A stretch of DNA of 64,000 bases from Pseudomonas azotoformans (GTDB taxonomy: Bacteria > Pseudomonadota > Gammaproteobacteria > Pseudomonadales > Pseudomonadaceae): positions 248,001 to 312,000 of the forward strand of contig NZ_LT629702.1 in assembly GCF_900103345.1 (NCBI RefSeq), read 5' to 3'. How positions within the stretch are numbered: the first letter of the stretch is position 1; the number at the start of each line of letters is the position of its first letter. Position numbers and translations under genes: made by a program. The notes beneath the pieces were generated by a model. The model was given only the letters and a program-made list of their open reading frames with translations. It was not told the origin of the DNA and did not search any database. Below, one piece after another: positions 56,790 to 61,317 of the stretch.

Positions 56790-57089
56790 TCAACACGCCC
56801 ATCTGAAATCGTGAAAAGCCATCGCCTCCGGTGGCGCTGCCACTAAAGCTTCAATCCGGCGCCTTGTCGCTTGTAACGAGGCTGCGTAGCTTACCCCCAT
56901 GCCCAAAGCATCGATGATGGGGAAGATATCTTCAAGGCCGCAGTCGAGGATCAAGGTGGCTTCGCAATTGCTCGACAAGTTCGGTATTGGACAGTTCAGT
57001 GGTAAGCGATCGCGGGGTAGATCGATCAGCAGCCAACTGCGGTATTTGAAGCGCGCGCTCACGTCCTTGAGCAGATCGTTCCATTCCAT
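56790..57089 (-). CDS. Unknown protein at the end of the N-hydroxylation operon
   Basis: A 99-residue protein with no family I recognise. It begins MEWNDLLKDVSARFKYRSWL and contains LPLNCPIPNLSSNCEATLIL and DIFPIIDALGMGVSYA. It has three cysteines (one C-terminal) and no signal peptide or membrane helix. It starts 9 bases after the LysE-type gene stop, implying co-transcription. The remnant-rich DNA behind it (56400-56789) means it could itself be truncated. Confidence 0.5.
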   Translation of the reverse strand: MEWNDLLKDVSARFKYRSWLLIDLPRDRLPLNCPIPNLSSNCEATLILDCGLEDIFPIIDALGMGVSYAASLQATRRRIEALVAAPPEAMAFHDFRWAC

Positions 57090-57098
57090 GACACGGCC

Positions 57099-57722
57099 TC
57101 ATCGACTGGCAATCAACACGGGAATCGCGTTGTTGAGGGAGAACGCCACCAGAAATACAGCCAATCCCACATCGATCTGGCGGGTGTATTTGAGAAACAG
57201 CGCCTTGATCGGGCCTTGGCCGAAGAGCAGCGAGACCAGGGAGTACCAGATGACTTCCAAGGTAGAGCACAACATCACCACCAGTACCTTTTCGAGGTCG
57301 GTACGTGGCGAAGAAAGAAAGCCGGCGTAGATGCTGATCATGAAGGCGATGGTTTTCATGTTGCTGATGTTAGTGATGACCCCCACGCGATACGCCTTGG
57401 CGAAGCTGGTGACGCCAGGTGTGGTGCTTTCTGCAGTACCGGTGTTTTTTGCCAGCACGCTTTTGATGATGCTGTAGGCGATGTACAGCAGGTACGCTGA
57501 ACCACACAGGGTGGCGACCTTGGAAAAGGCCGGGTACTCATGCAGCAATGCCGCCAGGCCCAGCAAGGAAATGGTCGAGAAGAATACGCCTACGGTGCAG
57601 ATCCCCAAGGTTGCACCAAGGCCGGTAGTGACCGACCCTAATGAAGAGAACCGGCTGACGATGATGAAATTCGGCCCGGGACTTATCACCGCCAGTATGT
57701 AAATCAATGCTGCTGTAAACAT
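57099..57722 (-). CDS. LysE/RhtB-family amino-acid exporter
   Basis: A 207-residue inner-membrane protein with six hydrophobic segments. The N-terminal signature of the family is visible as LAVISPGPNFIIVSRFSSLG (about 10-29), followed by GLGATLGICTVGVFFSTISL. Relatives export lysine, homoserine, threonine or amino-acid-like antimetabolites. Its place between an N-monooxygenase gene (51 bases upstream) and a small unknown gene makes it the likely exporter, or self-resistance pump, for the product of this operon. Confidence 0.9.
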   Translation of the reverse strand: MFTAALIYILAVISPGPNFIIVSRFSSLGSVTTGLGATLGICTVGVFFSTISLLGLAALLHEYPAFSKVATLCGSAYLLYIAYSIIKSVLAKNTGTAESTTPGVTSFAKAYRVGVITNISNMKTIAFMISIYAGFLSSPRTDLEKVLVVMLCSTLEVIWYSLVSLLFGQGPIKALFLKYTRQIDVGLAVFLVAFSLNNAIPVLIASR

Positions 57723-57773
57723 GTGACCTCCTTGTGTGAAGCAGCAGCCCGCGGGGCTGCTACCGGGGCTGAT

Positions 57774-59078
57774 TCAGGCCAATGCGTGCGCCGGAGCCTC
57801 GACCTGCGCCAACTGTGCCTCCAGGGCCGAGAGAATGTGTTCCACCCGCAACGAAATCAGGCTGAATGAACCGGCGTCCCCCAGGCCATGGGAGCTTTCG
57901 CATAGACCGTTGAGGAACACCGTGGGCAGATCATCCAAAGAGGTCAGGCTGTAATCGCGATTCACCACGAGCGCGCCGTGCGCATCGGCGCGAAACCGAC
58001 GGTGATAAGGCGCCAGTAACGGCGGATACAACTCGCCATTTTCCTTGGCGGCAATGTCCTTGAACCCGGTGGCAAGCACCAGTGCATCCAGCTCAAGGGT
58101 CGAGTGCGTGAGTTGATTGACCTCCTTGAGCGCCAACTGCACATGCCCTGAGGCATTAACCTGCGCCTGCTCGATGGCAATATTGTTGAGGATGTGGATG
58201 CGCTGCTTACCCTGCAACTTTTCCTCATGGATGCGCATGTACAGCGCATTGATCACATCTTCATCAGCCGAGCTGTAGTTGGTGCCTCGCAATTGCTTAT
58301 CCACCCGCGCCTTGGCCTCTGGCGGCAGGTTGAAGTAGTAGTCGATGAACTCCGGGAAATACACCTTGTCGCTGAACGGGCTGGTGTCCTTGAGTCGGAA
58401 ACTGAAGCTGCGGTGCAGCGAGTAGATTTCCTTGTCCGGAAACCTGGCGGTCAGGTCGAGCACAATCTCCACGGCGCTTTGGCTGGAGCCGACTACACCG
58501 ATGCGCTGCACGTTCGATGGCAACCTATTGATGCGTTCAAGGTAGTGATTAAGGTGGAACACCTGCGGGCCGGACAGGCCGTCGAAAACCGCCGGGATAT
58601 TCGCCGTGCGCCCGGTACCCAATACCAGGCTGCGCCCGTAAATGACCCGCTGATTGTTATAGGTGACCTTCCATACATGCTCGCCCTGTGATAGCAACGG
58701 CTCGACACGTTGGGCGAACGCCGAGGATTCGACACTGCCGAGAAAATGCCCGGCAACCCATTTGATGTATTGCGCATACTCGCGCCGTAGCGGGTATGTC
58801 AGCGGTAGGTTGAGGTAGTCGAACAGGCGGCCAGTTTCTTTCAGGTAATTGACGAAGCCATAGCGGCTGCGCGGGTTGCGCGGCGTGACCAGGTCCCGCA
58901 ACGGGTTGTTCTGGATGTCCGAGCCGCTGAGCAGCATTTCATCCTGCCAGTCCGGCGTTGGCTTGGCGTCCAGAAAGCGATAGGTCAGCGCAGAAGCTGA
59001 CTCTTCCAATCCTATAGCCAGCGCCAGGTTTGAGGGACCGAAACCAATACCCACGATATCGAAAACAGTGTCTGACAT
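57774..59078 (-). CDS. Flavin-dependent amine N-monooxygenase (SidA/IucD/PvdA family)
   Basis: A 434-residue FAD- and NADPH-dependent enzyme that hydroxylates the side-chain amine of diamino acids or diamines. FAD site: DIVGIGFGPSNLALAIGLEE (7-26). Substrate region: MLLSGSDIQNNPLRDLVTPR (about 48-67). NADPH site: IGVVGSSQSAVEIVLDL near 195. ATGF motif: DALVLATGFKDIA near 335. The length fits ornithine or lysine N-hydroxylases. Because a diaminobutyrate aminotransferase is encoded in the same operon, 2,4-diaminobutyrate (or its derivative) is the probable substrate (inference). Confidence 0.92.
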   Translation of the reverse strand: MSDTVFDIVGIGFGPSNLALAIGLEESASALTYRFLDAKPTPDWQDEMLLSGSDIQNNPLRDLVTPRNPRSRYGFVNYLKETGRLFDYLNLPLTYPLRREYAQYIKWVAGHFLGSVESSAFAQRVEPLLSQGEHVWKVTYNNQRVIYGRSLVLGTGRTANIPAVFDGLSGPQVFHLNHYLERINRLPSNVQRIGVVGSSQSAVEIVLDLTARFPDKEIYSLHRSFSFRLKDTSPFSDKVYFPEFIDYYFNLPPEAKARVDKQLRGTNYSSADEDVINALYMRIHEEKLQGKQRIHILNNIAIEQAQVNASGHVQLALKEVNQLTHSTLELDALVLATGFKDIAAKENGELYPPLLAPYHRRFRADAHGALVVNRDYSLTSLDDLPTVFLNGLCESSHGLGDAGSFSLISLRVEHILSALEAQLAQVEAPAHALA

Positions 59079-59088
59079 GGGAAAGCTC

Positions 59089-59556
59089 CTATCCCTGGAT
59101 TGGCTTCAATGGAAGATGGTAATAATGGTACGCGGTGTTTTCGATAAACCCGAAGCGCGTGTATAAGTTGCGTGCCTTAGGGTTGTCGTCCGCGCCTTCA
59201 ATAAATAACTGTTTGGCCCCGGTTGTCTGGGCGAACGCTTTTGCAGCATTCAATAACGCTAGGCCCACCCCCGTACTGCGTTTGGAGGCTTCGACATATA
59301 AGTCATTTAGTATCCACAGACGCTCCAGTGTGACACTTGAAAAGCTGGGGAAGAGTTGCGTAAACCCAATGACTTCATTGTTAACTTGCGCCACGATGAT
59401 TATTGACTCGCCCAGAAAGAAGCGCTGTTGAATAAATGCCAGGGAGCGGGCCAAGTCGGGTGCTTCGCCATAGAACTCGCGGTATTTGTCCAGCAACGGC
59501 GCGATGGCCGCGGCGTCGTCTAGGGACGCGTGCCGGGTGATGATCGGATCGCTCAT
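59089..59556 (-). CDS. GNAT-family N-acetyltransferase of the N-hydroxylation operon
   Basis: A 155-residue GNAT with the core FSSVTLERLWILNDLYVEAS, the acetyl-CoA loop segment KRSTGVGLALLNAAKAF (about 92-108, modified R-x-x-G-x-G) and the terminal motif DNPKARNLYTRFGFIENTAY. It differs from EctA, so ectoine synthesis is not indicated. Its start overlaps the aminotransferase stop by 4 bases and it ends 10 bases before the N-monooxygenase, so the three are tightly coupled. It may acylate the diamino acid or its hydroxylamine to a hydroxamate, or act as self-protection. Confidence 0.88.
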   Translation of the reverse strand: MSDPIITRHASLDDAAAIAPLLDKYREFYGEAPDLARSLAFIQQRFFLGESIIIVAQVNNEVIGFTQLFPSFSSVTLERLWILNDLYVEASKRSTGVGLALLNAAKAFAQTTGAKQLFIEGADDNPKARNLYTRFGFIENTAYHYYHLPLKPIQG

Positions 59557-60863
59557 GGCGCGGTCACCTCGGTAAAGGCTTGCTTGAGTATGTGCAAGCC
59601 TTGGGTGATCTGCACGGGAGTGATCGTTAACGCCGGGAGGAACTTGAGTACCTGATTGTCGATGCCGGAGGTTTCAATGATGAGCCCGCCAGCATAGGCC
59701 TGCGCTGCAATTTTTTGCGCTAGGGCCGAGTCGTCAAACTCTATGCCCCTGAAGAACCCCCTCCCTTTGAGACGGTTAGGTGCCTTGGCGGCAAAGCCTA
59801 GGGATAACTCCTGCAACCCCTGATGCAACTGTTCTGCCTTGTCCCTGAGCACCTGGGTAAAACCCGCGTTGCTCCAGTAGTGATCGATCACCGCCTTGCC
59901 CGTGACGAATGCCAGGTTGTTGCCGCGAAATGTGCCGTTGTGCTCTCCCGGCTCCCAGACATCCAGATGGGGAGCCAACAAGACGAGGGACATGGGCAAG
60001 CCATAACCGCTGATCGATTTGGATAAGGTCACGATATCCGGGGTGACACCCAGTGCTTCGAAGCTGAAGAACTCGCCGGTGCGACCACAGCCGGCCTGGA
60101 TATCGTCAATGATCAGCAGAACGTCATGCTCATGGGCGATGGCTTGCACGGCTCGTACCCAGGCGGCGGAAGCGCTGTTAACGCCGCCTTCGCCCTGCAC
60201 CGTCTCTAGTACGATAGCCGCCGGTTTGTCGACCCCGCTGCCGCTGCGCAGCATGTTGGCCAGGTACAACGAGGTGTCCACACCGTCGCCGAAGTACCGG
60301 TCATAGGGCATGAACGTCACGTTGTTCAAACTGACGCCGGCCCCTGCGCGTTTACGCGGGTTGCTGGTCAGGGCGAGGCTGCCCAGGGACATGCCATGGA
60401 ACGCGTTTGTGAACGCCACGACATTCTGGCGCCCGGTGTACTTGCGGGCCAGTTTGATGGCGGCCTCCACCGCGTTGGTGCCAGTGGGCCCGGGAAACTG
60501 CACTTTGTAGTGCAGGTTACGCGGTGCCAGGATCTGCTCTTCGAACGTTGTGAGGAAGGCTTTCTTGGCAGTGGTCTTGAAATCCAAGCCATGGGTGATG
60601 CCATTGTTACCGATGTAATCGAGCAGTGCTGCCTTCAAGACCGGGTTGTTATGCCCGTAGTTCAAGGCTCCTGCGCCACTAAAAAAATCGATGAATACCT
60701 GGCCTTGCTCACTGGTCAAGGTTGAGCCTTCGGCGGTATGGAAGGTGGCGGTGAAGTCCCGGCAGTAAGAGCGAACGTTAGATTCTTTAAGCTCGAATAT
60801 ATCCAGGGGTTGTGGCGCCGTAGGCGCAATTTTTGAAAACGAGTAATTCAGCGTAGCCGTCAT
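59553..60863 (-). CDS. Diaminobutyrate-2-oxoglutarate aminotransferase
   Basis: A 436-residue class III PLP aminotransferase. Motifs: FFSGAGALNYGHNNP (61-74), which is characteristic of the EctB/Dat branch, FPGPTGTNAVEAAIKLARK (about 123), LETVQGEGGVNSAS, IIDDIQAGCGRTGEFF, and the PLP lysine K282 in VTLSKSISGYGLP. It makes L-2,4-diaminobutyrate from aspartate semialdehyde. It is the first gene of a five-gene minus-strand operon with a GNAT, an amine N-monooxygenase, a LysE exporter and a small unknown protein. Neither ectoine nor siderophore synthetase genes are adjacent. Confidence 0.92.
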   Translation of the reverse strand: MTATLNYSFSKIAPTAPQPLDIFELKESNVRSYCRDFTATFHTAEGSTLTSEQGQVFIDFFSGAGALNYGHNNPVLKAALLDYIGNNGITHGLDFKTTAKKAFLTTFEEQILAPRNLHYKVQFPGPTGTNAVEAAIKLARKYTGRQNVVAFTNAFHGMSLGSLALTSNPRKRAGAGVSLNNVTFMPYDRYFGDGVDTSLYLANMLRSGSGVDKPAAIVLETVQGEGGVNSASAAWVRAVQAIAHEHDVLLIIDDIQAGCGRTGEFFSFEALGVTPDIVTLSKSISGYGLPMSLVLLAPHLDVWEPGEHNGTFRGNNLAFVTGKAVIDHYWSNAGFTQVLRDKAEQLHQGLQELSLGFAAKAPNRLKGRGFFRGIEFDDSALAQKIAAQAYAGGLIIETSGIDNQVLKFLPALTITPVQITQGLHILKQAFTEVTAP

Positions 60864-61317
60864 GTCAGGTACCGTTTATCAATCCATGTCAATGGACTTA
60901 CAACAGATATAGCGATTTCCCAGTGGCCATGTAGCGAATGCTGAGAAGACTTTAATCCCTTGAAGTCCGCGTGCAACTTTCATCCCGTGAAACATGACCC
61001 GCTCTGTTGGCCAGCAGGAACAATGACGTCTTTCGCTAATTAAACTAGCAGCAATTTAGGAATGAACCACTAATTATAAATTCATATGCTTATGACCCAT
61101 TTTTGGATGGTCGCGATGATAGGCATGCCTGCCACCGCCGACACCTTAGGTCAATGAGGCGGATATGCCCTCACGAATATAAATACCCTGTCGGCGCCTG
61201 TCGCAGAGGGTGCAAATCGGTACAGTCACTGCGCTGCTGTCGCTTTCGCTTGAGCAGCGAGGTGCCGAGTCGGTAGAGGTCGGCGTGGTTTTGAAGTGGG
61301 GTTGATCCGTTTTTTCA
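60864..61317. other. Promoter region of the N-hydroxylation operon; no gene seen
   Basis: About 450 bases. The right half is moderately AT-rich (near 61040-61090). TCCAT-gtca-ATGGA (60883-60896) is a small palindrome 20 bases ahead of the aminotransferase start. I see no GATAAT-type Fur box and no PvdS-type box, which argues against iron control. A plus-strand stretch ending in a TGA at about 61305 and a 63-codon minus frame at 61146-61337 show no family resemblance; they may be decayed coding sequence. Confidence 0.5.

What the first reader, a model, noticed from the sequence alone, without database searches (positions are those of the whole stretch)
56790..60863. Compact operon for an exported N-hydroxylated diaminobutyrate-type compound
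Diaminobutyrate aminotransferase, GNAT, amine N-monooxygenase, LysE exporter and a small unknown protein are tightly coupled (4-base overlap, 10-, 51- and 9-base gaps). There is no NRPS or siderophore synthetase and no visible Fur box. A small amino-acid-like hydroxylamine or hydroxamate exported by LysE, an antimetabolite or signal, fits better than a siderophore. I know no described system with exactly this set.
Basis: partly seen in the sequence, partly recalled or inferred. Interest (0 to 1): 0.75.

Follow-up and report, generated by a model that had tools for sequence, protein, structure and literature searches.

The report
N-hydroxy-diaminobutyrate operon with immunity exporter
A five-gene Pseudomonas operon appears to make and export a small toxic amino acid built on N-hydroxylated diaminobutyrate, and some related bacteria have lost the synthesis genes but kept the exporter, as if for immunity.

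Summary
The five genes are real, with the stated order and gaps. The block recurs in 10 distinct Pseudomonas loci in seven chromosomal settings. The transaminase passes the EctB model, so L-diaminobutyrate (DABA) is the expected precursor. The monooxygenase is not of the ornithine type: Arg and Asp/Glu replace two ornithine contacts, and 14 of 14 Pseudomonas relatives at 46-50% identity adjoin a DABA transaminase. DABA N4-hydroxylation has a precedent, Apy11 (PMC11705231, passages). No siderophore gene was found at 50.9-63.8 kb, and no good Fur box. New here: 12 of 398 genomes have the LysE orthologue; six hold the whole operon, six have LysE without the synthesis genes at that locus, five of them behind the operon's own promoter. 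The deletions show four breakpoints, and LysE stayed under purifying selection after one. This immune-non-producer pattern favours a toxic product with LysE as exporter and immunity over a siderophore or signal. Product, toxicity and acetylation site are untested.

The parts
61075..61094 (-). Promoter core CATAAGCATATGAATTTATA with a TATAAT-like -10 overlapping its end; kept in producers and in five exporter-only loci
   Evidence: Conserved in the upstream alignment (L055 has substitutions); single site in the own genome at up to 3 mismatches; kept upstream of LysE in L089-L093
60864..61062 (-). Highly conserved 5' leader, function unknown; the 32-nt invariant run is 61024-60993
   Evidence: 121 of 176 leader columns (from about 61037) invariant in 10 distinct loci, against 7-13% of four-fold degenerate codon sites of four operon genes; no Rfam match above chance; no covariation; fold no more stable than shuffles, z -0.06
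59553..60863 (-). EctB-type diaminobutyrate--2-oxoglutarate transaminase; expected to make L-DABA
   Evidence: TIGR02407 616.8 bits over cut-off 552.2; best solved match 6rl5, DABA transaminase, E 1.9e-141
59089..59556 (-). GNAT N-acetyltransferase, 155 aa, overlapping the transaminase gene by 4 bases; proposed to acetylate the N-hydroxylated or free DABA amine
   Evidence: PF00583; solved matches include DpA polyamine acetyltransferase, E 1.2e-22; orthologue in all 10 complete loci; not detected in L089-L093 and L106
57774..59078 (-). Flavin-dependent N-hydroxylating monooxygenase; proposed L-DABA N4-hydroxylase
   Evidence: PF13434 292.4 bits; PvdA K69->R, N254->D, L408->S, with Q64, N284, S410 kept; 14 of 14 Pseudomonas hits at 46-50% adjacent to a DABA transaminase
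57741..57763 (-). Hairpin between monooxygenase and LysE, before the LysE ribosome site
   Evidence: 10 pairs in 10 loci, 3 with a change on both sides, one of these a poorly kept innermost pair
57099..57722 (-). LysE-family exporter, 207 aa; proposed exporter and self-immunity
   Evidence: PF01810 93.6 bits; present in 6 of 6 genomes with the monooxygenase orthologue; intact in 7 of 7 loci without a complete biosynthetic set
56790..57089 (-). 99-aa protein of unknown function with conserved C-terminal F(K/R)WAC
   Evidence: 17 homologues, the four with a named organism all Pseudomonas; fastest-evolving gene of the five; lost, reduced to a remnant or frameshifted in the seven exporter-only loci

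Best explanation
The operon makes and exports a small toxic amino acid derived from N4-hydroxy-L-2,4-diaminobutyrate. EctB makes L-DABA from aspartate semialdehyde and glutamate (family assignment shown; activity inferred). The flavin monooxygenase hydroxylates the distal nitrogen (class shown; substrate inferred from subfamily signature, linkage to DABA transaminases and the Apy11 precedent). The GNAT acetylates the product, most likely giving N4-acetyl-N4-hydroxy-DABA (inferred; site unknown). LysE pumps it out and thereby protects the cell (inferred from repeated loss of the synthesis genes with promoter and LysE kept intact). The 99-aa protein belongs to production or its control, not immunity (inferred from its loss in non-producers).
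For: Conserved five-gene unit in 10 distinct loci in seven upstream settings. EctB model passed. Of the 120 homologues listed, 120 carry Arg and Ser at PvdA K69 and L408, and 101 Asp, 15 Glu, 4 Asn at N254; passages of PMC7347517 and PMC8009421 name SidA K107 and N293 as ornithine-binding. 14 of 14 Pseudomonas hits at 46-50% lie beside a DABA-type transaminase: 8 pass the EctB model; of the other 6 the best models are DABA transaminase ones, 5 over the TIGR00709 cut-off and L067 just below, 400.9 against 401.6. Leader-DNA search, blind to LysE: 11 of 398 genomes, 6 producers and 5 without the synthesis genes there, all 11 with intact LysE. Four distinct breakpoints; three exporter-only copies share the upstream flank of four producers. 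After the deletion shared by G187 and G308, LysE gathered 9 synonymous and 2 non-synonymous codon changes (P 2e-4; 8e-4 with transition bias 4). The label 'exporter only' needs 5 changes on the LysE tree, at least 3 forced by well-supported branches.
Against: No product, toxicity or transport was measured. LysE-type exporters can carry ordinary amino acids, so retention could serve another role; this LysE is most similar to homoserine/threonine exporter models (2A76, RhtC), below every cut-off. G187, one of the exporter-only genomes, also carries another DABA transaminase-monooxygenase cluster (L066), whose product LysE might serve there. Six of the seven loci were found through LysE or promoter, so loci that lost everything are invisible, and the upstream genes of L016 are unknown. 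The LysE tree is weakly resolved (3 of 14 inner branches starred) and exporter-only labels are no less clustered than shuffled ones. The post-deletion test rests on 11 codons of one pair.
Confidence: 0.6

Rival explanations
1. The operon makes a hydroxamate building block for a siderophore, for example a pyoverdine variant, or is itself iron-related.
For: Siderophore pathways use the same enzyme classes: DABA transaminase (PvdH), N-hydroxylase (PvdA), acetyltransferase (recalled). The genome has another PF13434 enzyme at C1:2361528.
Against: No NRPS, NIS synthetase or TonB receptor among the neighbours scanned from 50.9 to 63.8 kb; no IucA/IucC in the genome (control rang in 2 of 14); best Fur match 11 of 19; non-ornithine signature; non-producers keep the exporter, and no receptor gene is part of the unit.
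Confidence: 0.06
2. The product is a signal, nutrient store or harmless compound; LysE is kept by exporter-only strains because it exports an ordinary amino acid or another product.
For: 2A76/RhtC-type similarity of LysE; toxicity never measured. In G336 LysE (78-79%) lacks the operon promoter, with a 26-residue remnant of the small gene after it. G187 holds a second DABA-type cluster.
Against: The orthologue is rare (12 of 398 genomes) and in 11 of 12 sits in the operon or directly behind its promoter, so it is not housekeeping; four different deletions stop short of LysE.
Confidence: 0.2
3. The N-hydroxy group is an intermediate: N-N bond formation (hydrazine or 5-aza-proline type) follows, by the 99-aa protein or an enzyme elsewhere.
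For: Relatives of this monooxygenase lie with a MetRS-like protein (L064, with a cupin; L073) or an FMN_bind_2 protein (L059; L074 by annotation). N4-hydroxy-DABA is an Apy9 substrate and is cyclised slightly by KtzT (PMC11705231, passages).
Against: The operon has no MetRS-like, cupin or FMN_bind_2 gene; GNAT takes its place and tracks the monooxygenase beyond the complete Pseudomonas operons. The 99-aa protein has no detectable relative of that kind.
Confidence: 0.14

Closest known systems
Apy11/Apy9 of actinopyridazinone biosynthesis (Streptomyces), read in passages of PMC11705231
   Same: N4-hydroxylation of L-DABA by an N-hydroxylating monooxygenase that rejects lysine and ornithine
   Different: There the hydroxylamine feeds a hydrazine synthetase; the window operon has none, and has GNAT, LysE and a small protein instead
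MetRS-cupin-lysine N6-monooxygenase systems (PMC2922099, passages)
   Same: Monooxygenase with, in some, a GNAT or DABA transaminase
   Different: MetRS paralogue and cupin are described as invariably linked there and are missing here
Antimetabolite amino acids of Pseudomonas: AMB (PMC4357302, start of abstract in search listing) and FVG (gvg; passages of PMC8064604)
   Same: Small non-proteinogenic amino acid with LysE-type transporters
   Different: AMB uses two NRPSs and two oxygenases; for gvg the terms monooxygenase, hydroxylase and diaminobutyrate do not occur in PMC8064604
Pyoverdine PvdH/PvdA and rhizobactin RhbA/RhbE (recalled; RhbE substrate in passages of PMC7347517)
   Same: DABA transaminase plus N-hydroxylase
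   Different: NRPS or NIS synthetase, receptors and Fur control (recalled); here none seen, and different active-site residues from PvdA
Ectoine operon ectABC (recalled)
   Same: EctB and a GNAT
   Different: No ectoine synthase in the operon; monooxygenase and LysE instead

Membership tests
N-hydroxylating flavin monooxygenases (PF13434) | Family profile over cut-off | tested here: met
   292.4 bits, cut-off 21.3
L-ornithine N5-hydroxylases (PvdA, SidA, KtzI) | Lys and Asn that bind ornithine (PvdA K69, N254) | tested here: not met
   Arg and Asp in the window protein; KtzI keeps Lys and Asn in the HMMER alignment
L-DABA N4-hydroxylases (Apy11) | Turnover of L-DABA | not testable with these tools
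   Indirect only: linkage to DABA transaminases
L-DABA N4-hydroxylases (Apy11) | Sequence kinship with Apy11 | not tested
   The Apy11 sequence (BDC79917) was not fetched or identified among the hits
EctB DABA transaminase | TIGR02407 over its cut-off | tested here: met
   616.8 against 552.2 bits
Ectoine operon | Ectoine synthase EctC | tested here: inconclusive
   None in the operon; none in the genome, but the control genomes rang nowhere
Hydroxamate siderophore cluster | NRPS or NIS synthetase, receptor, Fur box close by | tested here: not met
   Scanned neighbours are transketolase halves, MFS, SDR, LysR, a phosphatase fragment, M20 hydrolase and an acyl-CoA dehydrogenase-like protein; IucA/IucC absent from the genome; Fur best 11 of 19
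LysE superfamily exporters | PF01810 over cut-off | tested here: met
   93.6 against 25.6 bits
LysE superfamily exporters | A named substrate class (2A76, RhtC, LeuE, LysE, ArgO and so on) | tested here: not met
   All six NCBIfam models below their cut-offs
Hydrazine synthetase or piperazate synthase systems | MetRS-like/cupin or FMN_bind_2 gene in the operon | tested here: not met
   No such family in the operon or the scanned neighbours
Self-immunity exporters of toxin loci | Retention of exporter after loss of synthesis | tested here: met
   7 loci with intact LysE and no complete synthesis set, 5 of them behind the operon promoter
Self-immunity exporters of toxin loci | Protection against the product | not testable with these tools
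   Needs an experiment

The most novel reading that the evidence does not exclude
A previously undescribed N-hydroxy-DABA antimetabolite whose locus evolves like a bacteriocin locus: producers, and immune non-producers that arose several times by deleting the synthesis genes between a kept promoter and a kept LysE immunity exporter. The monooxygenase heads a wide, mostly mis-annotated subfamily (often called ornithine or lysine hydroxylase) of DABA N-hydroxylases that feeds several unexplored non-siderophore pathways, and the locus carries a new, highly constrained leader that controls production but is dispensable for immunity.
Probability: 0.45. Interest if true: 0.75.

Novelty: new variant of a known kind. 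Interest (0 to 1): 0.64.

Why it matters
A five-gene operon without NRPS or PKS is easy for cluster finders to miss (inference), yet the natural deletions point to a bioactive product and name its likely immunity gene. Exporter-only relatives are ready-made controls for a toxicity test. The signature also suggests that many proteins annotated as ornithine or lysine hydroxylases instead act on diaminobutyrate, which would redirect pathway prediction in Pseudomonas and beyond.

Tried and rejected
Siderophore: rejected as the main reading (exporter-only pattern). Ectoine: no EctC in the operon; genome test inconclusive. GNAT as the immunity gene: unlikely, it is not detected in L089-L093 and L106 (unknown for L016, whose contig ends). 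Leader as structured RNA: not supported (only one chance-level match at E 9.5, on the other strand, 0 of 50 pairs changed on both sides, z -0.06). Leader as Rsm/Csr target: 5-6 GGA per leader, but 15% of mononucleotide shuffles reach the observed 5; undecided. Leader peptide: the 38-aa frame of the window runs to full length in 3 of 10 loci (window, L010, L013), is 31-32 aa in four, and is 14 aa or runs on without a stop in L011, L014 and L012; not supported. Fold of the 99-aa protein: mean pLDDT 64.5 and no PDB match at E <= 0.001; no conclusion. Kinship of the window GNAT with the Xenorhabdus cluster GNAT: 22% identity over 85 residues only. Searches at class level (369 genomes) and phylum level (398) at E <= 1e-95 rang only in the own genome and, at phylum level, in G187, which is also Pseudomonas, so relatives outside the genus come from the protein and plasmid searches. 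My own-PvdA row was a wrong-frame ORF and is disregarded. One search (promoter and terminator scan) found no more than shuffles give.
Full report
OBSERVATION. The window lies at 248001-312000 of a 6.73-Mb single-contig Pseudomonas genome (named loci with the closest monooxygenases are P. cyclaminis 96%, P. spelaei 94%). Family scans support four of the five names; the 99-aa protein matches nothing in Pfam or NCBIfam at E <= 0.1.

ONE UNIT. One search returned 8 named loci, of which 7 hold all five genes in the same order; the eighth, P. flavescens L016, is broken (below). The genus search examined 398 genomes: 302 have some homologue at E <= 1e-60, but only 6 have a monooxygenase at 81% identity or more. 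All 6, the own genome included, have the full block. G140 and G235 match L015 and L011 by contig coordinates, and G285 gives the same identities as L009, so I count 10 distinct complete operons. Gaps are nearly constant (-4; 9-10; 51-56; 9) and change is mostly synonymous (dN/dS 0.02-0.13 for the four large genes where computable, 0.10-0.39 for the small one; one GNAT and two small-gene pairs not computable). In L055 the small protein is 132 aa and differs after about residue 74. The 2.5-kb upstream flanks of these operons fall into seven groups (16 rows in nine groups with five exporter-only loci), so the unit sits in different chromosomal settings.

CHEMISTRY, FROM SEQUENCE. The transaminase passes the ectoine EctB model, so L-DABA is the expected product. 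The monooxygenase keeps PvdA Q64, N284 and S410 but has Arg for K69, Asp for N254 and Ser for L408. Among the 120 homologues listed (of 1180 passing E <= 1e-80, of 7997 scored) Arg and Ser are invariant and the N254 position is Asp in 101, Glu in 15, Asn in 4. Passages of two papers name SidA K107 and N293 as ornithine contacts (PMC7347517, PMC8009421). The 14 Pseudomonas hits at 46-50% identity all lie beside a DABA-type transaminase: 8 pass the EctB model, the other 6 match DABA transaminase models best, 5 of them over the TIGR00709 cut-off and L067 at 400.9 against 401.6. Their settings, scanned in representatives (L056, L058, L059, L060, L064) and otherwise assigned by BLAST cluster, are GST-monooxygenase-EctB-EamA; TauE-HpaB-Rieske-transaminase-monooxygenase-DAO, with an FMN_bind_2 gene in some; and a MetRS/cupin/AMP-binding cluster. 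Annotated plasmids show similar settings in Xenorhabdus and Mycetohabitans and a further one in Agrobacterium vitis; the Leisingera copy has a cupin but no transaminase annotated beside it, and the Azotobacter copy (36.5%) lies in an NRPS/TonB siderophore locus. The review PMC11705231 (passages) reports Apy11 as an L-DABA N4-hydroxylase inactive on lysine and ornithine, and KtzT slightly active on N4-hydroxy-DABA, giving 5-aza-proline. So N4-hydroxy-L-DABA is the most likely intermediate. The GNAT resembles small amine acetyltransferases (2eui, E 2.1e-25, function unnamed; DpA polyamine acetyltransferase, E 1.2e-22; HPA2, E 0.0017). By equal contig length, a proxy, 7 of the 15 monooxygenase hits at 55-61% identity (P0035-P0049) share a contig with a GNAT hit, so the GNAT belongs to this branch beyond the complete Pseudomonas operons. 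N4-acetyl-N4-hydroxy-DABA is my best guess; N2-acetylation is not excluded.

EXPORTER-ONLY RELATIVES. Searching 398 genus genomes with the 247-bp promoter-leader DNA, which is blind to LysE, gave 11 genomes: the 6 producers and 5 without the monooxygenase orthologue. In all five (G043, G157, G170, G187, G308) the promoter runs into an intact 207-aa LysE at 91-95% identity. A LysE census gave 12 of 398: the same 11 plus G336, where LysE (78-79%) lies without promoter or synthesis genes but is followed by a 26-residue remnant of the small gene. Breakpoints differ: G170 joins promoter almost directly to the LysE ribosome site; G187 and G308 share one junction inside the leader; G157 keeps part of the leader and scars of the monooxygenase; G043 keeps the whole leader, the first codons of ectB and a piece of the monooxygenase. 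P. flavescens L016 has a monooxygenase cut next to a transposase-like fragment (PF00665, 32.3 bits, just below its cut-off of 32.6) with a frameshift, a frameshifted small gene and an intact LysE; its contig ends there, so upstream genes are unknown. G157, G187 and G308 share the upstream flank of four complete operons, which points to in-place deletions. On the LysE tree exporter-only rows need 5 changes of label, at least 3 forced by well-supported branches (3 of 14 inner branches starred; shuffled labels need 5.1 on average, so the label is not clustered). Changes between G187 and G308 are taken to have arisen after their shared deletion: 9 synonymous and 2 non-synonymous codons, P 2e-4 under equal rates. 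So LysE alone seems useful to cells that no longer make the compound. Producers always have it (6 of 6). This is what immunity to a toxin predicts, and not what a siderophore or signal predicts. It does not prove toxicity. Against it: G187 also has another DABA-type cluster (L066) that LysE might serve.

REGULATION. About 240 bp before ectB are conserved, and little is alignable beyond. In the 176-column leader 121 columns are invariant among 10 loci with one run of 32, while 7-13% of four-fold sites in four coding genes are invariant. No Rfam family, no covariation and no excess stability was found. Exporter-only loci kept the promoter but four of five lost most of the leader, so the leader probably serves production. 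The promoter core occurs once in the genome. A hairpin before LysE shows paired changes.

LITERATURE. Eight searches (open-licence PMC only) listed no paper that I recognised as describing this operon. One search served FVG. I read passages, not whole papers, of PMC11705231, PMC7347517, PMC8009421, PMC8064604, PMC2922099 and PMC3377617; other papers only as search listings.

VERDICT. Observation confirmed; interpretation strengthened toward an exported antimetabolite and away from a signal. New variant of a known kind (small amino-acid antimetabolite loci with LysE exporters) with a DABA N-hydroxylase core and natural immune non-producers.

Noticed in passing
window 61062-60864 (- strand): Very highly conserved leader with a 32-nt invariant block; function unknown; partly overlaps a 38-aa frame that is not preserved in all loci.
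   Followed up: partly
L059 6722-7300, L068, L069, L074 11370-12017: DABA transaminase plus relative of this monooxygenase plus an FMN_bind_2 (piperazate-synthase-like) gene, with HpaB, Rieske and TauE genes: a candidate 5-aza-proline or pyrazolidine pathway, also on a Mycetohabitans plasmid.
   Followed up: partly
L056, L057, L060-L063, L065: GST-monooxygenase-EctB-EamA cluster in 7 Pseudomonas loci, 6 with a divergent AraC-type regulator (representatives scanned, the rest by BLAST cluster).
   Followed up: no
L064 and L073 (Xenorhabdus pXT29): MetRS-like, GNAT, AMP-binding, DABA transaminase and monooxygenase cluster shared between a Pseudomonas and a small Xenorhabdus plasmid; L064 also has a cupin gene.
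   Followed up: partly
L071, L072 and PDB 5cqf: The 5cqf-type 'L-lysine 6-monooxygenase' has Arg at the K69 position and in L071 and L072 lies beside a fused PALP-ornithine-cyclodeaminase-like gene, suggesting 2,3-diaminopropionate rather than lysine as substrate.
   Followed up: no
window 57089-56790: The unknown protein ends in F(K/R)WAC in 16 of 17 aligned sequences after a variable stretch; a conserved C-terminal cysteine.
   Followed up: no
window 56510-56238 (- strand): Fragment of a histidine phosphatase (38 of 194 profile positions) downstream of the operon, possibly decayed.
   Followed up: no
L076 7657-19257 (Agrobacterium vitis plasmid): EctB-monooxygenase-PLP enzyme-KASIII-MFS-iron redox enzyme-LysE-carbamoyltransferase cluster, apparently another pathway with the same start.
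   Followed up: no
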